From positions 1 through 11,483 of the forward strand of contig CAMOZD010000011.1 of assembly GCA_946630645.1 (NCBI GenBank): a stretch of 11,483 nt of DNA, in the 5' to 3' direction. The notes beneath the pieces were generated by a model, which saw only the letters and a program-made list of their open reading frames with translations, did no database searches and had not been told where the DNA came from. Both the position numbers and the translations under genes were made by a program. Below are positions 4,347-10,994 of this stretch, in pieces. Each line of letters opens with the position of its first letter. The stretch's first letter is position 1. The stretch is from an uncultured Lachnospiraceae bacterium. Lineage in GTDB: Bacteria; Bacillota; Clostridia; Lachnospirales; Lachnospiraceae.

Positions 4347-5567
4347 ATGGATAGAGAGACGATTTTAAAAAAACTGCATGCCCAGATCAATGTCAACGGC
4401 CATATTATCGGGGCTTCCGTAGGGTCCGGCATGACGGCCCGCTATGTGGCCATGGGCGGGGCAGACCTGCTGCTGGCCTTAAGTGCCGGACGTTACCGGA
4501 TCATGGGGAGGAGCTCTTATACCAGCTACCTCTGCTACGGCAACAATAATGACACAGTCATGGAGATGGGCCGGAAGGAGTTATTTCCCATCATAAAAGA
4601 TGTTCCCATCCTCTTTGGCCTTATGGCCTCAGACCCATCTATCCATATCTATGAATATCTCAAGGAAATCCGGGATAACGGTTTTTCCGGCATTGTGAAT
4701 TTCCCCACCCTGGCCCTGGTGGACGGTCAGTTCCGGGAAGGCCTGGAGGAGGAGGGAACCAGCTATGACCTGGAGGTGGAGGCCGTCAACCTGGCCCATC
4801 ATCTGGACCTCTTCACGGTTGCCTTTGTGACCAGCCTGGAGGAGGCTGAAAAGATGCTGGAGGCCGGGGCAGATGTCATCTGTGTCCACTTCGGCATGAC
4901 CAAGGGAGGTTTTCTGGGAGCCAGGAATTATATCAGCCTGGAGGAATCCCGGCGGAGGACCGAGGAAATCTATGCCTACTGCCAGGACAAGGCGCCCCAT
5001 GTGATCCGTATGATCTACGGCGGTTCGGCCAACACCCCGGTGGAAATGCAGTATCTTTATAACCACACTGCCTGCCAGGGTTTTATGGGCGGGTCCAGCT
5101 TTGACCGGATTCCTATAGAGCGGGCCCTTTATAATACTACCAGGGCCTTCAAGAGCGGCGGCAGTTTTAAGGAGGACGATCCGGTCATGGCCCTTCTCAA
5201 CGGGGACTGGCACTCCGGCAACTATATCGACTATATCAAGAATTATATAGAGGATAATTACAACCGGGAGATCCAGCTCAGTGACCTGGCCATCCTGGCC
5301 CATGTATCCCCCTCCTACCTCAGTATCAAATTTAAGAAGGAAATGGGCATCAGCTTTTCTGAGTATATGGTCCGCTTTCGCCTGGCCAAGGCCAAAAAGA
5401 TGCTGGAGGAGTCCCGCGTCGGCTGCCGGGAGATCGCCGAGAGAGTGGGCTATAAGGATTATGCCCATTTTTCCAAAATTTTTAAAAAATATACCGGTCT
5501 GTCCCCTGTCGGCTGGAGAAAAGCTGCCAGACAAGCTGAAGAAAGCGCTGGAAAAATGGAAGAGTAA
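4347..5567 (+). CDS. AraC-family regulator with an N-terminal PEP hydrolase-like TIM-barrel input domain
   Basis: A 406-residue fusion. Residues 1 to about 280 form the TIM-barrel 'phosphoenolpyruvate hydrolase-like' domain (PF09370 type). It aligns along its length by eye with the stand-alone protein at 7281-8111, sharing SGMTA, AGRYRIMGR, GFSGIVNFPT, DGQFREGLEE, GADVICVHFGMTKGG and GGSSFDRI. Residues 295-398 form a complete AraC DNA-binding domain with two helix-turn-helix units (DLAILAHVSPSYLSIKFKKE and REIAERVGYKDYAHFSKIFKK, ending TGLSP). The expected role is a transcriptional regulator whose barrel binds a small molecule. Compared with the stand-alone copy, YNSGR is LSAGR (45-49) and the His of CHGG is Tyr224, so the barrel may bind rather than turn over ligand. 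The start at 4347 follows GAGGGG with 6-nt spacing. The tail beyond the HTH is short and charged. The likely targets are the genes that follow; this is inferred from neighbourhood. Confidence 0.9.
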   Translation: MDRETILKKLHAQINVNGHIIGASVGSGMTARYVAMGGADLLLALSAGRYRIMGRSSYTSYLCYGNNNDTVMEMGRKELFPIIKDVPILFGLMASDPSIHIYEYLKEIRDNGFSGIVNFPTLALVDGQFREGLEEEGTSYDLEVEAVNLAHHLDLFTVAFVTSLEEAEKMLEAGADVICVHFGMTKGGFLGARNYISLEESRRRTEEIYAYCQDKAPHVIRMIYGGSANTPVEMQYLYNHTACQGFMGGSSFDRIPIERALYNTTRAFKSGGSFKEDDPVMALLNGDWHSGNYIDYIKNYIEDNYNREIQLSDLAILAHVSPSYLSIKFKKEMGISFSEYMVRFRLAKAKKMLEESRVGCREIAERVGYKDYAHFSKIFKKYTGLSPVGWRKAARQAEESAGKMEE

Positions 5568-5625: not shown

Positions 5626-5797
5626 GGGACTTGAACTTAGAAAAACAGCTAAAGAAAATGACAGAAAATAGACAGATAAACACTAGAATACATAATAATT
5701 GTCTGAAAATTTATAAATAAAACATAAAGACAACTTTTATAAAAAACGGCCACCCCAAACAAAATATAAACACAAATATAAGTAATTTAAACACATT

Positions 5798-5905
5798 TAC
5801 TTTCGGAAATATCCTTTATAGAATATAGATACCGATAATAGCATCCGATGCTTTTAGCTGGTATATAGATCTATATCCTGTAAATATTTCCGAAAGTATT
5901 TTTTT
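5798..5905 (+). promoter_or_regulatory. Nested inverted repeat ending in a T-run: attenuator or structured leader candidate
   Basis: Perfect 15-nt arms, TACTTTCGGAAATAT (5798-5812) and ATATTTCCGAAAGTA (5884-5898), are followed at once by seven T residues (5899-5905). Between the arms are nested pairings: TATAG/CTATA (5824-5828/5871-5875), ATACC/GGTAT (5829-5833/5860-5864) and a small AGCAT/ATGCT hairpin (5840-5844/5848-5852). ATATAGATCTATAT (5863-5876) is itself a perfect palindrome and could form a competing fold. It lies 40-60 nt upstream of the UPF0261 start. Possible identities are an attenuator or riboswitch-like leader, the terminator of the AraC fusion gene with an unusually large apical region, or a small MITE-like insertion. 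I matched it to no known riboswitch class. Confidence 0.55.
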
Positions 5906-5923
5906 GGCAGGAAGGAGCCTGCC
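5906..5923 (+). promoter_or_regulatory. Small hairpin with an SD-like loop upstream of the UPF0261 gene
   Basis: GGCAGG (5906-5911) pairs perfectly with CCTGCC (5918-5923). The six-nt loop is AAGGAG, a ribosome-binding-site sequence displayed away from any start codon. The functional AGAAAGGAG lies downstream at 5942-5950. The role is unknown. Confidence 0.4.
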
Positions 5924-5956
5924 GACCGTTTATATTTCCCCAGAAAGGAGATGGCT

Positions 5957-7174
5957 ATGAAAACAATAGCGGTTTTAGGAACCTTTGATTCCAAAGGACC
6001 GGAATTCCTGTATCTCAAAGGATTGATCGAAGATCTGGGCCTTAAGGCATATACGATTCATACAGGAGTATTTGAGCCGACTTTTACGCCGGATGTAAGC
6101 AATGCGGAAGTTGCAGCAGAAGCAGGATATGACATCAAGGAAGTAGCCGCAAAGAAGGACCGGGCCCTGGGAACAGAGGTCATGTCTAAAGGAACCAAGG
6201 CCATCGTGCCCAGACTCTATAAGGAAGGTAAGTTTGACGGCATCATTTCCATGGGCGGTTCAGGAGGAACAGCCCTGGCGACACCGGCCATGAGGACTCT
6301 TCCTGTAGGTGTGCCCAAGGTGATGGTTTCCACCATGGCCTCCGGTGATGTGGCCAGGTATGTAGGCACCAGTGACATCATGATGATGCCTTCCATCGTA
6401 GACGTGGCAGGCTTGAATAAAATATCGAAAATCATTTTCAAAAATGCGGTTCATGCCGTGGCAGGTATGCTGACCCTGGGCCAGGACAAGGAAGAGGCCG
6501 CAGGTGATGAAAAGCCTTTGATTGCTGCCACCATGTTCGGCGTGACCACTCCCTGTGTGGAGCAGGCTAAGGCTTACCTGGAAGACAAGGGCTATGAAGT
6601 CCTGGTATTCCATGCTACCGGAACCGGCGGCAGGACCATGGAGTCCCTGGTGGACGCAGGCTTCTTTACCGGAGTTCTGGACCTGACCACCACTGAGTGG
6701 TGTGATGAGATCTGCGGCGGTATCCTCAATGCCGGTCCGGACCGGTGTGCTGCCCCGGTCAGAGCAGGAGTTCCCCTGGTTGCTTCCGTGGGAGCCTGTG
6801 ATATGTGTAACTTCGGCCCCATGGACTCGGTGCCGGAAAAATACAAGGACAGGAACCTCTACAAGCATAATCCGGAGATTACCCTCATGCGGACCACCGT
6901 GGAAGAAAATGTTGAGATCGGCAAAGAGCTGGCAGACAAGTGGGACAAGGCAGAAAGAGAAATCGTCATTCTTCTTCCCAAAAAGGGCGTGTCCATGATC
7001 GATGCGGAAGGCCAGCCCTTCGACGGCCCGGAAGAGAGAGAAACCCTCTATGCCACCATCAAAGACAACATTTCCAATGACAAGGTTAAGATTATCGAGA
7101 TGGACAACAACATCAACGATCCGGAATTTGCCCTGACCGCAGCCAAAGAGCTGGTCCGGCTGATCGAGGAATAA
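5957..7174 (+). CDS. UPF0261 / Tm-1-like ATP-binding domain protein
   Basis: A 405-residue cytoplasmic protein of the UPF0261 family (Tm-1-like ATP-binding domain). The family is named from the N-terminal half of the tomato Tm-1 virus-resistance protein; its bacterial reaction is not established. Seen in sequence: the N-terminal strand MKTIAVLGTFDSKGPEF, the glycine-rich loop MGGSGGT (99-105) followed by TPAMRTLPVGVPKVMVST, the segment GTSDIMMMPSIVDVAG, and in the second half FHATGTGGRTMESL, a CDMC cysteine pair (Cys281, Cys284) and a C-terminal GQPFDGPEERETL segment. The length fits the family. The ATG at 5957 was chosen over the ATG at 5951 because AAAGGAG ends at 5950, leaving proper spacing only for 5957. 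The stand-alone TIM-barrel gene follows after 106 bp with no terminator between, so the two are probably one transcript. Confidence 0.92.
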   Translation: MKTIAVLGTFDSKGPEFLYLKGLIEDLGLKAYTIHTGVFEPTFTPDVSNAEVAAEAGYDIKEVAAKKDRALGTEVMSKGTKAIVPRLYKEGKFDGIISMGGSGGTALATPAMRTLPVGVPKVMVSTMASGDVARYVGTSDIMMMPSIVDVAGLNKISKIIFKNAVHAVAGMLTLGQDKEEAAGDEKPLIAATMFGVTTPCVEQAKAYLEDKGYEVLVFHATGTGGRTMESLVDAGFFTGVLDLTTTEWCDEICGGILNAGPDRCAAPVRAGVPLVASVGACDMCNFGPMDSVPEKYKDRNLYKHNPEITLMRTTVEENVEIGKELADKWDKAEREIVILLPKKGVSMIDAEGQPFDGPEERETLYATIKDNISNDKVKIIEMDNNINDPEFALTAAKELVRLIEE

Positions 7175-7280: not shown

Positions 7281-8111
7281 ATGTTAAGAAAAAGCAGAAG
7301 TGAGATTTTAGCAGATTTTGATGCCCAGGTTAAGGCTGGAAAGATTCTTGTAGGCGTTGGCGCCGGAACCGGTATCACAGCTAAGTGTTCCGAGGCAGCA
7401 GACGTTGATATGCTGATCATCTATAACTCCGGCCGTTTCAGAATGGCAGGCCGCGGCTCCTTATCAGGACTCTTATCCTACGGCGATGCCAATGCCATCG
7501 TTCAGGAGATGGGCCAGGAGGTTCTTCCCATCGTTAAGAAGACACCGGTTCTGGCTGGCGTATGCGGCACAGACCCCTTCCGTGTGATGGACATTTTCTT
7601 AAAGCAGCTGAAGGACCAGGGCTTCAATGGCGTTCAGAATTTCCCGACTGTTGGACTGATCGATGGAAAATTCCGTGCCAACCTGGAAGAGACAGGTATG
7701 GGTTATGGTCTTGAGGTAGATATGATCCGTGAAGCTCATAAGCTTGACATGCTGACCTGTCCTTACGTATTTGATCCGGACCAGGCCAAGGCTATGGCAG
7801 AGGCAGGCGCAGACATCCTGGTTGCCCACATGGGCCTGACCACCAAGGGCAGCATCGGCGCCGAGACCGCCGTTACTTTGGATGACTGCTGTGTGAAGAT
7901 CCGTGAGATCATCGCAGCCGGAAGAGAAGTGAATCCGGATATCAAGGTTATCTGCCACGGCGGACCGATCGCAGATCCTGAGGACGCAGCTTATGTGATC
8001 AAGAATGTTCCGGAAATCGACGGCTTCTTTGGCGCTTCCTCCATCGAGCGTCTGGCTTCTGAGAGAGGCATGACAGCCCAGGCTGCAGCCTTCAAGGCCA
8101 TCGAGAAATAA
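7281..8111 (+). CDS. Phosphoenolpyruvate hydrolase family TIM-barrel protein
   Basis: A 276-residue single-domain cytoplasmic TIM barrel of the PEP hydrolase-like family (PF09370 type). The family label is historical; I would not state the reaction. Motifs: [10 protein letters not shown] (25-34), [13 protein letters not shown] (48 onward), [58 protein letters not shown] with His226, and GASSIERL near the end. The ATG is preceded by AGGAGG (7267-7272) with 8-nt spacing. It lies downstream of the UPF0261 gene and ends in a strong terminator. Arginine codons, counted by eye, are CGT 6, AGA 5, CGC 1 and no CGG or AGG. The AraC-fused paralogue uses CGG or AGG for 14 of 24. This suggests high expression of the enzyme copy and low expression of the regulator copy. 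Confidence 0.93.
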
Positions 8112-8194: not shown

Positions 8195-9145
8195 TTATTT
8201 TAAAGCCAGCAGGGCCCTGCCCAAACCCTCATCAGCCACCAGGCAGTCCACAAAGCCACCCTTTATGGCCCCGTGGAGGACGGCGGCCTTGTCCTTGCCG
8301 GCAGCGACACAGATTTTTAAAGGGATGGCTCGCAGCTGGTCTAAGGGCAGGCTGATCCTTCTGTCAGCCAGGTCCTGGTCTACGATATTGCCCTCGAAGT
8401 CAAAGTAGCCGGAGGCGATATCTCCCACAGCTCCCCTGGCCTGGAGAGTCTCGAAAAGACCATGGTCCAGAAAGCCCGATTTTGCCATGATGGAATCCTG
8501 GTCCATCCTGCCGGTACTGAAGATGGCCAGGTCAGACCTGGCAGCCAGGTCCAGGATGGCCTTGATGCCGGAGTCATTGCGCAGCAGGCCTGCCGTCTGG
8601 ATGTCATCCACAATCACAGGGGATGGGATGGTATAACCCTGGCCGCCGGTGGCGGCAATCAGAGCCCTCACCATGTCATCGGCCCCCTGGGCGGCTTCCA
8701 CATCGGCGCAGCGGCCATTGAGCTGGACCACCTTGACATCCCGGGCATCCAGATGATCGATACAGGAAGCCAGACATTTCATCGTATTACCCCAGGCCGT
8801 AGCTATGACGGCCCCGGAAGTCAGCTGGTCCTGAAGCAGGCTGGCGGCAGCCTTGCAGGTATCCAGAAGCACCGCCTGGGGATCGTCAAGGACAACCGGT
8901 ACGATGATCACTTTGGCAAGCCCAAAGACCCGGCCGACCTCCTCTGCCAGCTCCTCCTCTGACAGAAAACTATAATCGATGGAGATCTTGACATAACCGG
9001 ATTCTATGGCCCGGTTGATCATGCGGCTGACCGTAGGGACAGAAATCCCTTCCTCTTTTGCGATATCCTTCTGGTTCATATGCTGGATATAATATTTTGA
9101 CGTGACGCGAAGCATCTGTAATAATTTATTCTTATTCATAAACAT
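8195..9145 (-). CDS. SorC/DeoR-family sugar-binding transcriptional regulator
   Basis: A 316-residue DNA-binding regulator. The N-terminal helix-turn-helix lies at about residues 24-45 (MNQKDIAKEEGISVPTVSRMINRA). Residues from about 60 on form the SorC-type effector-binding domain (PF04198), with AIFSTGRMD, ASGYFDFEGNIVD and the C-terminal ICVAAGKDKAAVLHGAIKGG-FVDCLVADE pattern typical of the family. Members usually bind phosphorylated sugars or related metabolites and control nearby catabolic genes. Here the obvious candidates are the tannase-like gene, divergently transcribed across a 286-bp gap, and the UPF0261/TIM-barrel pair on the other side; this is inference. No Shine-Dalgarno sequence precedes either N-terminal Met (9145 or 9139), unlike every other gene in the window, so the exact start is uncertain and translation may be weak or leaderless. 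Confidence 0.9.
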   Translation of the reverse strand: MFMNKNKLLQMLRVTSKYYIQHMNQKDIAKEEGISVPTVSRMINRAIESGYVKISIDYSFLSEEELAEEVGRVFGLAKVIIVPVVLDDPQAVLLDTCKAAASLLQDQLTSGAVIATAWGNTMKCLASCIDHLDARDVKVVQLNGRCADVEAAQGADDMVRALIAATGGQGYTIPSPVIVDDIQTAGLLRNDSGIKAILDLAARSDLAIFSTGRMDQDSIMAKSGFLDHGLFETLQARGAVGDIASGYFDFEGNIVDQDLADRRISLPLDQLRAIPLKICVAAGKDKAAVLHGAIKGGFVDCLVADEGLGRALLALK

Positions 9146-9174
9146 AGTTTAGCTTATAGCAGACCAATCGTCAA
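9146..9174 (-). promoter_or_regulatory. Candidate promoter abutting the SorC-gene start
   Basis: On the minus strand TTGACG (9174-9169) and TAAACT (9151-9146) are separated by 17 nt, the ideal sigma-A spacing. The -10 box touches the annotated ATG, so transcription would begin near the second ATG (9139-9137). This fits the lack of an RBS and suggests a leaderless transcript. TATAAG (9158-9153) is a competing -10 with poor spacing. Confidence 0.4.
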
Positions 9175-9384
9175 TAAATCCAGAAAAATAGTGAAAATAT
9201 TTACCCTTTTTAGGGAAGAAAACATATACAAATAAAAATATTTTAAATAATATATACAAGTAAATATCAGTCTTCCTGGGTGTCACTGTCTAAAATTACA
9301 AGAAAAAAGAGTAGATTTTTGTCCATATAAGTATTCTTCCTTCTTTTATCCCGTATTTTTCTAATTCTGACCAGACAAAGGGTT
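9175..9384. repeat. AT-rich intergenic DNA with a spaced direct repeat
   Basis: ATATACAAATAAA (9224-9236) and ATATACAAGTAAA (9252-9264) are near-identical and 28 bp apart. The palindrome AAAATATTTT (9235-9244) lies between them. AAATATTTAC (9195-9204) is the exact reverse complement of GTAAATATTT found at 5880-5889 in the UPF0261 leader. These could be operator sites for the SorC or AraC regulator, but such AT-rich matches also arise by chance. No gene was seen here. Confidence 0.3.
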
Positions 9385-9426
9385 TATAATGGTAAATGGA
9401 AAAATATGTTTTTTAATATAAAGGAG
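9385..9426 (+). promoter_or_regulatory. -10 box and RBS of the tannase-like gene
   Basis: TATAAT (9385-9390) is a consensus -10. The only -35 at ideal spacing is the weak TAATTC (9362-9367), which fits an activator-dependent or regulated promoter. AAGGAG (9421-9426) lies 5 nt before the ATG at 9432 and fixes the start. Confidence 0.5.
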
Positions 9427-9431
9427 ATCGC

Positions 9432-10994
9432 ATGGGAAAATTACAGATTGAGGCGGAGAGTCTCTATCATTGGATTCATACAGAGGGCCTGGAGGATGTG
9501 GACTGTATCCACAGCAGGGCAAATGTGCCCTTTATCCAGCAGCTGATCGATGCCCTGACAGGGGACCTGCCGGAGCTTTCGGACCTTAAGGTAACCGAAG
9601 TGGAATATTTTGACCATAATTACCAGGAAAACGGGACGCCGACCCTGACCAACCTGCTGCCCTTTTACCGGGTGCAGCTGCAGAAGCCCCTGACGGAAGT
9701 GGACCTTACCACCATCACTGTCTGGCTTCCTGTAAAATGGAACGGCCGTTTTATCGGTCTTGCCGGGACCGGCTCCAACACGGATTGTGCCTGGCGCCAG
9801 GCCATAGGGACTAATATCCTGACCTGGCCCCTGGCTGTCAATAACGGCTTTGCCTGTGCCTCCACCGATGGAGGACTGGGAGAGCTGGACAGCTTCAACT
9901 GGGGCTTTTGCCGGGATGGCAGTCTCAACCAGGCCCAGCTGGAAAGCTGGTGCCACCGGGCGACCCATGAGATGACCGTGGCTGGGAAAATGCTGGTCCA
10001 AGGCCTTTATGGCCAGGCTGCCGAAAAGTCCTACATGCACGGGACTTCCGGAGGAGGAAGACAGGCCATGGAAGAGGTGCAGCGGTACCCGGAGGACTAT
10101 GACGGGGTCTGGGCCGACTCGCCGGCCATGGATTATAACCGGCTTAACTTTTCAGCCCTCTGGGCTGCCATCGTGATGAATAATGAAAACCACCCCATCC
10201 CTCTGGTCAAGTTCCAGACCGTCTATGACTGGATGCTGGGCCACTATTCTGACAATGGGGAATACATTGCCGGCCTGCGCCAGTCCTGGATTCCCAAAAA
10301 GGAGGAACTTTGCGGACTTATCACTCCTGCCGGAGCCATCAGCCAGGAAGACTACCGGATCATGAGAAAGATCTGGGAGGGACCCGTAGCTGCCGATGGG
10401 ACCAGGATGGGCTACGGCTTTGGCCCGGAGATCATCCAGTGGCCCTACGACAGCCATCCCTATGGATATCTCCAGTACAATGAGGCCGGGGACCTGATTC
10501 TCATGGCTCCTGCCGAGCAGGCCATGCGCTGGTACAGCGGCGACCCCCAGTGGAACTGGAAGACCTGCAGCTACCAGGAATTTGAAAGCCTTTACCGGAA
10601 GGCCCAGGAAGACTTTGCCCACATAACCGCCTACAATCCAGACCTAAGAGCCTTTACGGACAAGGGCGGCAAGCTGCTGATCACCCATGGCAGCGGCGAC
10701 CCGGTCATCTCCTGGAAAATATCCGCAGAATATTACCATCAGGCCCTGCAGTATTTTGACAATGAGGAAGCCCTGCAGGCCCATATCCGACTCTTCATCC
10801 AGCCGGGAGCCGGCCACACGACCCTGGGCTGGGCCGGACCCACCGTCTGTAATGCCTATGGCATGGCAGCCCTGATGAACTGGGTGGAAGAAGGCCAGGC
10901 CCCACAGATCCTCATCACCGTCAAATATGACATTTACTCAGATACCGTCAAAGACCAGTTCGCCTCCCAGTGCTTCAACACCTGGATGATCTGA
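9432..10994 (+). CDS. Tannase/feruloyl-esterase family alpha/beta hydrolase, cytoplasmic, cysteine-less active site
   Basis: A 520-residue hydrolase of the tannase/feruloyl esterase family (PF07519), whose characterised members cleave esters of gallic or hydroxycinnamic acids. Seen in sequence: FYRVQLQKPL and VWLPVKWNGRF near the N-terminus; the nucleophile elbow GTSGGGRQAMEEVQRYPEDYDGV with Ser206; the acid HGSGDPVISW with Asp423; and the base GAGHTTLGW with His462. In characterised members Cys residues next to the catalytic Ser and His form a disulfide (CS-D-HC motif). Here both positions are Thr (205 and 463). The N-terminus is hydrophilic, with no signal peptide, in contrast with many secreted relatives. 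The gene stands alone, with its own -10 and RBS, divergent from the SorC regulator. The family is clear; the substrate is not. Confidence 0.88.
   Translation: MGKLQIEAESLYHWIHTEGLEDVDCIHSRANVPFIQQLIDALTGDLPELSDLKVTEVEYFDHNYQENGTPTLTNLLPFYRVQLQKPLTEVDLTTITVWLPVKWNGRFIGLAGTGSNTDCAWRQAIGTNILTWPLAVNNGFACASTDGGLGELDSFNWGFCRDGSLNQAQLESWCHRATHEMTVAGKMLVQGLYGQAAEKSYMHGTSGGGRQAMEEVQRYPEDYDGVWADSPAMDYNRLNFSALWAAIVMNNENHPIPLVKFQTVYDWMLGHYSDNGEYIAGLRQSWIPKKEELCGLITPAGAISQEDYRIMRKIWEGPVAADGTRMGYGFGPEIIQWPYDSHPYGYLQYNEAGDLILMAPAEQAMRWYSGDPQWNWKTCSYQEFESLYRKAQEDFAHITAYNPDLRAFTDKGGKLLITHGSGDPVISWKISAEYYHQALQYFDNEEALQAHIRLFIQPGAGHTTLGWAGPTVCNAYGMAALMNWVEEGQAPQILITVKYDIYSDTVKDQFASQCFNTWMI

What the first reader, a model, noticed from the sequence alone, without database searches (positions are those of the whole stretch)
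4347..5567. AraC regulator whose sensor is a PEP hydrolase-like TIM barrel, next to the matching enzyme
Seen: a complete PF09370-type barrel (residues 1 to about 280) joined to a complete AraC DNA-binding domain (295-398), with a stand-alone paralogue of the barrel two genes downstream. Established: AraC regulators usually carry cupin-type or periplasmic-binding-type sensors, so an enzyme-fold barrel is unusual. Inference: the enzyme was duplicated and recruited as the sensor of its own substrate or product, giving a self-contained metabolite-sensing circuit.
Basis: partly seen in the sequence, partly recalled or inferred. Interest (0 to 1): 0.8.

Follow-up and report, generated by a model that had tools for sequence, protein, structure and literature searches.

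The report
Enzyme-derived sensor with swappable regulator output
A bacterial gene switch uses a relative of an uncharacterised enzyme as its sensor and sits right in front of the genes that include that enzyme; other bacteria keep the same sensor and target but attach a different kind of switch, with a matching change in the DNA it acts on.

Summary
Confirmed: ORF 4347-5567 is a PF09370 barrel (residues 6-270) joined to an AraC DNA-binding domain, followed by UPF0261 and a stand-alone PF09370 barrel. The 120 best of 606 homologues all have this architecture. The order fusion-UPF0261-barrel on one strand holds in 21 of 23 fusion loci read.

What is new here is the wiring. AraC-type loci share a 21-bp direct repeat, ACATAAACAC-N11-ACATAARCAC, next to a -35, 17-bp spacer and -10 in front of UPF0261; window 5764-5824. 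It matches once per genome in 12 of 15 genomes, not at all in 3, and once in the window's own incomplete assembly. Other Firmicutes carry the same sensor on a sigma54 activator; there a -24/-12 site lies in the same place (19 of 19; 0 of 19 AraC-type, 0 of 22 without fusion). All fused barrels form one clade apart from the stand-alone ones, keep most pocket residues, and replace Tyr48 and His226.

So a self-contained circuit is supported, a local duplication is not, and the ligand is untested. New variant of a known kind (enzyme-derived sensors such as MocR/GabR).

The parts
4347..5567 (+). regulator: PF09370 barrel fused to AraC DNA-binding domain, 406 aa
4362..5156 (+). sensor part: PF09370 barrel, residues 6-270
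5226..5522 (+). AraC-type DNA-binding domain, about residues 294-392
5764..5794 (+). predicted operator: direct repeat with half-sites 5764-5773 and 5785-5794, 21 bp apart
   Evidence: (D2)
5796..5824 (+). predicted promoter of the UPF0261-barrel operon: -35 TTTACT 5796-5801, 17-bp spacer, -10 TAGAAT 5819-5824
   Evidence: same offset in 24 of 27 regions with a site
5798..5905 (+). long hairpin (arms 5798-5812 / 5884-5898 and 5815-5830 / 5869-5884) followed by T7; read as the regulator gene's terminator, overlapping the operon promoter
5951..7174 (+). UPF0261 (Tm-1-like) gene, first gene of the target operon (start may be the second ATG, 5957)
7281..8111 (+). stand-alone PF09370 barrel, second gene of the target operon

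Best explanation
A dedicated one-operon switch. Shown by sequence: a PF09370 barrel is joined to an AraC DNA-binding domain; a 21-bp direct repeat beside a promoter lies between it and the UPF0261-barrel operon; the repeat is found once in most genomes tested; and where the same barrel is joined to a sigma54 activator, a sigma54-type site lies at the same place. Inferred: the regulator binds the repeat with two DNA-binding domains and activates transcription from the promoter whose -35 lies next to the second half-site (like araI1-araI2 at araBAD, recalled). The barrel is a ligand sensor that has lost catalysis: two positions fixed in the main stand-alone barrels (Tyr48, His226) are replaced in all fused barrels examined, while Arg54, Ser60, Asn71, Asp98, Asn120, Glu145, Asp178 and Ser253 stay. 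The ligand is most likely the substrate or product of the UPF0261-barrel pair, whose reaction is unknown. The hairpin over the promoter probably ends the regulator's own transcript, while the operon transcript starts inside it and lacks its 5' arm.
For: Domains. Block order in 21 of 23 loci; neighbours outside the block are shared by few loci. Operator: paired-half-site search on 24 regions from 9 families best at spacing 21 (376; next 309 among spacings 12-30; 138-147 in six shuffled sets, those for spacings 18-24 with fewer restarts). Score of 12 or more in 24 of 29 AraC-type regions (24 of these 29 trained the matrix), 0 of 5800 shuffles, and best -0.5 in 16 sigma54-type and 0.9 in 22 fusion-free loci. 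Loci not used in training: L246, L247, L249 and L250 score 16.7, 12.5, 18.5, 17.6. Exactly one match per genome in 12 of 15, reversed control 0; one in the own assembly. Sigma54 form: site in 17 of 18 genomes against 0 of 19 AraC-type, 0 of 22 without fusion and 3 of 73 other genes of the same loci; the one miss and the one left out show it when more sequence is read. Sigma54 domain confirmed in 17 of these 19. Pocket. One sensor clade.
Against: No binding, ligand or expression data. AraC-type loci without a convincing operator: L016/L075 (3.5), L083 (5.9), L248 (-9.5); weak ones: L187 (9.1), L085 (8.6); L099 has no UPF0261 in the stretch read. In the window a site inside the tannase gene (10621-10651) scores 14.5, above the operon site's 13.4, and has TTTACG at the -35 place; I take it as chance but did not test it. 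The -10 count broke ties in favour of the common offset, the sigma54 weights and cut-off of 17 were mine and the cut-off was set, where L075 reached 17.0 inside the UPF0261 coding start; a fusion-free locus reached 16.5. Thirteen of the 19 sigma54 genomes are one genus.
Confidence: 0.72

Rival explanations
1. The sensor works by protein contact: the fused barrel mimics the stand-alone barrel, docks onto free UPF0261 protein, and so measures how much UPF0261 is without a partner, or its ligand state.
For: UPF0261 and the barrel co-occur (491 of 504 bacterial genomes with the barrel also have UPF0261) and co-evolve, and are one protein in plants (PMC5028733, passages and section 5). The operon always read here has UPF0261 directly after the fusion in 21 of 23 loci.
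Against: The residues kept are those at the strand ends of the barrel, as expected for a small-molecule pocket; surface contacts were not analysed. L099 has a fusion but no UPF0261 in the stretch read.
Confidence: 0.18
2. The fused barrel is still an enzyme, and the protein is a bifunctional enzyme-regulator (trigger enzyme).
For: Most conserved polar residues of the pocket are kept.
Against: Tyr48 and His226 are replaced in 25 of 25 and 149 of 149 fused barrels of a partly overlapping set, against 42 of 42 kept in the main stand-alone barrels. Which residues catalyse is not known, so this is indirect.
Confidence: 0.1
3. The hairpin at 5798-5905 is an RNA switch or attenuator of the operon, and the AraC-type regulator acts elsewhere.
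For: Strong fold, z -6.67 against shuffles, followed by T7; hairpins with a T-run in 26 of 33 AraC-type loci.
Against: No Rfam family reaches its gathering score. In 22 of 33 loci the 5' arm begins upstream of the expected start, so the operon RNA would lack it; in 4 it begins after, in 7 none was found. The window's arm sequence is found only in the window and L003 among 14 regions, and L003 has shorter perfect arms (13 against 15 nt). The operator beside it is conserved.
Confidence: 0.07
4. The regulator controls many genes, and the operon is just one of them.
For: A second site of good score in the tannase gene of the window; strict patterns miss diverged sites, for instance those of G889 and G1103.
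Against: One match per genome in 12 of 15 and one in the own assembly, 75.6% complete.
Confidence: 0.1

Closest known systems
MocR/GabR regulators (aminotransferase-fold sensor on a GntR-type DNA-binding domain; PMC5320631 and PMC6917764, starts of abstracts in a search listing only)
   Same: An enzyme-fold domain serves as the sensor of a one-component regulator of metabolic genes.
   Different: Other enzyme fold (PLP aminotransferase), other DNA-binding family, domain order reversed; no case with a matching enzyme gene as target was looked for.
AraC activators with sites next to the -35, such as AraC at araBAD (recalled)
   Same: AraC-type DNA-binding domain, two direct-repeat half-sites 21 bp apart, the second beside the -35.
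   Different: AraC's sensor is a cupin-type domain (recalled); here it is a TIM barrel. DNA looping was not examined.
Sigma54 activators with a PF09370 sensor (Pfam's older description, recalled; plu1011 of Photorhabdus annotated so, PMC2422844, one passage)
   Same: Same sensor clade and same target operon.
   Different: Output is an AAA+ sigma54 activator with a -24/-12 promoter instead of an AraC domain with a sigma-A-like promoter.
Tm-1 of plants (UPF0261 and the barrel in one protein; PMC5028733, passages, sections 5 and 19)
   Same: The two genes of the operon correspond to its two halves.
   Different: Separate genes here, with a dedicated regulator; Tm-1 has no DNA-binding domain in that description.

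Membership tests
PF09370 (PEP_hydrolase-like barrel) | Profile match over the curated cut-off, full length | tested here: met
   316.9 bits against 33.8, profile 2-266 of 267
PF09370 (PEP_hydrolase-like barrel) | Enzyme activity | not testable with these tools
   Reaction unknown; Tyr48 and His226 replaced
AraC/XylS regulators | AraC-type double helix-turn-helix domain | tested here: met
   HTH_18 and HTH_AraC over cut-offs; fold match 3lsg
AraC/XylS regulators | DNA binding at direct repeats next to a promoter | tested here: inconclusive
   Repeat and promoter found by sequence; binding not measured
Sigma54 activators with a PF09370 sensor | AAA+ sigma54 interaction domain | tested here: not met
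   Absent from the window protein; present in relatives such as L091 and 18 further long or cut fusions
MocR/GabR regulators | Aminotransferase-fold sensor and GntR-type domain | tested here: not met
   No such Pfam match; the resemblance is one of principle
Known riboswitch or leader RNA at 5798-5905 | Rfam match over the gathering score | tested here: not met
   5 matches up to E 1 in the window, all below gathering scores, none at this place

The most novel reading that the evidence does not exclude
One enzyme-derived sensor has kept its target operon while its output was exchanged between two unrelated transcription systems (AraC with a sigma-A-type promoter, and a sigma54 activator with a -24/-12 promoter), the promoter changing with it; and the sensor reads a metabolite of the Tm-1-like UPF0261-barrel pair, whose chemistry is unknown.
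Probability: 0.6. Interest if true: 0.75.

Novelty: new variant of a known kind. Interest (0 to 1): 0.62.

Why it matters
The UPF0261-PF09370 pair is found in bacteria, archaea and fungi and, fused, in land plants, where tomato Tm-1 inhibits a virus (PMC5028733), yet none of my searches showed a known reaction for it. A regulator that carries a relative of the barrel gives a way in: the small molecule that switches it on is a good candidate for the substrate or product. The exchange of output domain and promoter at one operon is also a clear natural case of circuit rewiring.

Tried and rejected
Rejected: recent local duplication of the neighbouring barrel. Rejected as evidence: Asp69, which looked diagnostic; 2p10 has Asn there in the alignment, 6 of 15 divergent stand-alone barrels have Asn, and the wider AraC-type set varies (N 76, E 53, S 6, D 6 among 142). 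Glu136 also varies there (E 78, Q 57), so it is not counted as kept. Rejected: a known RNA family. Led nowhere: neighbours as a guide to the substrate; they differ from locus to locus.

Literature: PF09370 alone, PEP hydrolase with AraC, and two searches for TIM-barrel sensors with AraC found no paper. Searches list 13 distinct papers; I opened two (PMC5028733: passages, sections 5 and 19; PMC2422844: one passage); 70 papers held at least 3 terms, 20 listed, two opened (PMC6615313: passages and section 5; PMC12316311: passages). PMC6615313 lists sensor domains of sigma54 activators in 57 Clostridiales and PF09370 is not among them (section 5); its supplements were not seen. The domain drawings of Figure 3 in PMC5028733 are not held and may show fused forms. 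JGI already names one homologue 'predicted TIM-barrel enzyme/AraC-like DNA-binding protein', so the architecture itself is annotated. 'Not in print' for the wiring rests in an open-licence library.

Limits of counts: 40 neighbourhoods were chosen by me from the hits. The 29 intergenic regions are those left of 43 after removing identical ends; 5 near-duplicates were dropped for training. L228 scores low because my 40-nt margin cuts its site. Regulator type was set by hand; one search confirms the domain in 17 of 19 sigma54 and 15 of 19 AraC genomes, the rest rest on frame length. G1017 is left out of the 19: its fusion is cut by contig ends, a sigma54 piece lies at one end (L169), and it has a site. 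Of the 19, 13 are genus g200 and 6 come from 4 other families. In one search of 47 stand-alone rows 46 have Tyr48 and 44 His226; one with Leu and Tyr is probably the cut fusion L168, not checked. overlaps the tree set. The tree is a quick one with long branches. The Mantel test does not remove species history.

Full report
Observation. The 406-aa ORF at 4347-5567 carries PF09370 over residues 6-270 and an AraC DNA-binding domain over about 294-392. Two genes follow on the same strand: a UPF0261 (Tm-1-like) protein at 5951-7174 and a stand-alone PF09370 protein at 7281-8111. The window is the whole of its contig, from an assembly of 1.63 Mb, 75.6% complete, in which PF09370 occurs only in these two genes. 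A Lachnospiraceae MAG has the same order, its fusion 97% identical (L003). The predicted structure is a barrel followed by an AraC-type domain, with the linker of low confidence (272-276 and 281-288 under 50). The best solved match is 2p10, a putative phosphonopyruvate hydrolase; indole-glycerol-phosphate synthase, phosphonopyruvate hydrolase, 2,3-dimethylmalate lyase and PEP mutase follow at much lower similarity.

How common. Of 606 database homologues the 120 best, those listed, all carry PF09370 plus AraC domains. PF09370 matches over the cut-off were found in 5 of 294 genomes of the order, 18 of 392 of the class and 37 of 398 of the phylum, own genome included each time, and in 21 of 40, 13 of 96, 1 of 29 and 22 of 98 genomes of four families. 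In a fifth family, 3 of 22 genomes hold a near full-length match to the fusion itself. It is thus patchy. I chose 40 neighbourhoods from these hits. With L003 and the window, 23 loci have a fusion: 16 of AraC type and 7 longer ones, which are sigma54 activators: PF09370 + Sigma54_activat + HTH_8 in L091, and the sigma54 part in all 7. In 21 of 23 the order is fusion, UPF0261, barrel on one strand; all 23 hold a second barrel. The exceptions are L083, where the fusion points the other way and the barrel gene is 6.3 kb off in a cluster with a sugar-type ABC transporter, and L099, with no UPF0261 in the stretch read. One long fusion, in L114, is interrupted. Genes outside the block are shared by few loci. 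Barrel and UPF0261 without a fusion are common too (22 genomes).

Origin of the sensor. In a tree of 82 barrels, the 57 stand-alone ones lie on one side of a supported branch and the 25 fused ones (16 AraC, 9 sigma54) on the other; the AraC-fused ones form one group (SH-aLRT 96 each). I read this as one old split and later exchange of the output domain, not a copy made beside the window's enzyme. The root is not known. In one family (f69) one genus carries the sigma54 form and two carry the AraC form, by frame length, confirmed by domains wherever a fusion locus was fetched. Distances among regulators follow those among their partner barrels (Spearman 0.82, Mantel p 0.001, 20 pairs), which shared species history may explain.

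Sensor pocket. Against 42 main stand-alone barrels, the 25 fused ones keep Asp43, Arg54, Ser60, Asn71, Asp98, Asn120, Glu145, Asp178, His183 and Ser253. Tyr48 (42 of 42) is Leu or Phe in 25 of 25, and His226 (42 of 42) is Tyr in 25 of 25. In a wider, partly overlapping set of 149 fused barrels (142 AraC, 7 sigma54) both changes are present in all; Arg54, Ser60, Asn71, Asp98, Asn120, Glu145, Asp178 and Ser253 are kept in all, Asp43 in 148 and His183 in 145. Of 15 divergent stand-alone barrels 13 keep Tyr48 and 14 His226. By the strands of the model many of these positions lie at or just after the ends of strands, where a TIM barrel has its active site. I infer a pocket that binds but no longer catalyses; which residues catalyse is not known.

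AraC-type operator. Regions from the fusion to UPF0261 share a direct repeat, ACATAAACAC-N11-ACATAARCAC. A paired-half-site search on 24 of 29 distinct regions, 9 families, was best at spacing 21 (376; next 309 among spacings 12-30; 138-147 in six shuffled sets). The repeat abuts a -35-like TTTAC(A/T) in most, and a -10 lies at the same offset in 24 of 27 regions with a site (ties were broken in favour of that offset), giving a 17-bp spacer. In the window: half-sites 5764-5773 and 5785-5794, -35 5796-5801, -10 5819-5824. Scores of 12 or more: 24 of 29 AraC-type regions and 0 of 5800 shuffles; the best upstream of UPF0261 was -0.5 in 16 sigma54-type and 0.9 in 22 fusion-free loci. Of loci fetched later and not used in training, L246, L247, L249 and L250 score 16.7, 12.5, 18.5 and 17.6, and L248, where UPF0261 is divergent, has none. 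L016/L075 and L083 have none. Over whole genomes, 12 of 15 have exactly one match, 3 have none, and the reversed control has none; the pattern was drawn from such loci, so the single occurrence is the informative part. By coordinates all 12 lie at the end of the fusion gene. The own assembly has one, at 5764-5800. Against this: in the window a site inside the tannase gene, 10621-10651, scores 14.5, more than the operon site's 13.4, and has TTTACG at the -35 place. The pattern does not hit it. I take it as chance, untested.

Sigma54-type promoter. With the sigma54 form, a -24/-12 site lies upstream of UPF0261 in 17 of 18 genomes, against 0 of 19 AraC-type, 0 of 22 without fusion, and 3 of 73 other genes in the same loci. 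The one miss (74 nt available) and the one left out (no UPF0261 on the stretch) both show a site once more sequence was read: 19 of 19. Thirteen of these are one genus, 6 are from 4 other families. The weights and the cut-off were mine; the nearest fusion-free score was 16.5 against 17, and with 60 coding bases included one AraC-type locus reached 17.0. The promoter type thus follows the regulator type in front of the same operon.

Hairpin. The stretch 5780-5950 folds at -52.7 kcal/mol, z -6.67; arms 5798-5812 and 5884-5898 are perfect and T7 follows. In 22 of 33 AraC-type loci a hairpin with a T-run begins upstream of the expected operon start, in 4 after it, and in 7 none was found. The simplest reading is a terminator of the regulator gene with the operon promoter inside it.

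What it works like, and membership. It works like an AraC activator placed as at araBAD (recalled), with an enzyme-derived sensor in the manner of MocR/GabR (listing only). By profile it is a member of PF09370 and of the AraC family; it is neither a sigma54 activator nor a MocR protein. The sensor on sigma54 activators was known to Pfam (recalled) and is noted for Photorhabdus (PMC2422844, one passage); a census of Clostridiales activators does not list it (PMC6615313, section 5).

What is not known. No ligand, reaction or binding data. That UPF0261 and the barrel act together rests on co-occurrence (491 of 504 genomes) and co-evolution in print (PMC5028733) and on the operon here.

Verdict. 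The architecture and circuit are real and recurrent. New variant of a known kind; interest 0.62.

Noticed in passing
L088, L095, L096, L098, L100 and L109: A RuBisCO-like protein (PF00016 shown in L096 and L109; the others by clustering) sits beside UPF0261 and PF09370 barrels, with a 2-phosphosulpholactate-phosphatase-like gene in L096 and a like gene in L088; a possible lead to the substrate.
   Followed up: partly
L083:6259-19844: Barrel gene in a cluster with MmgE/PrpD, periplasmic-binding protein, ABC transporter, dehydrogenases, phosphofructokinase and a transaldolase-like gene, with a divergent AraC-type fusion and UPF0261.
   Followed up: partly
L091:10997-14449: A sugar-type ABC transporter lies directly upstream of the sigma54-type fusion, on the same strand.
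   Followed up: no
8195-10994: A SorC/DeoR-type regulator (minus strand) and a tannase/feruloyl-esterase-like gene (PF07519) follow the block; in L003 an iron-type alcohol dehydrogenase comes next.
   Followed up: no
10621-10651: A good match to the operator matrix inside the tannase gene (score 14.5).
   Followed up: partly
L114, fusion gene upstream of UPF0261: The sigma54-type fusion is interrupted: two barrel pieces with a 417-aa open frame between them.
   Followed up: no
L248:3361-7049: Another arrangement: AraC-type fusion, a 472-aa frame with a barrel beside it, and UPF0261 on the other strand, without a recognisable operator.
   Followed up: no
3-2150: C-terminal half of a carbamoyl-phosphate synthase large chain at the left edge of the contig, probably cut by the contig end.
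   Followed up: no
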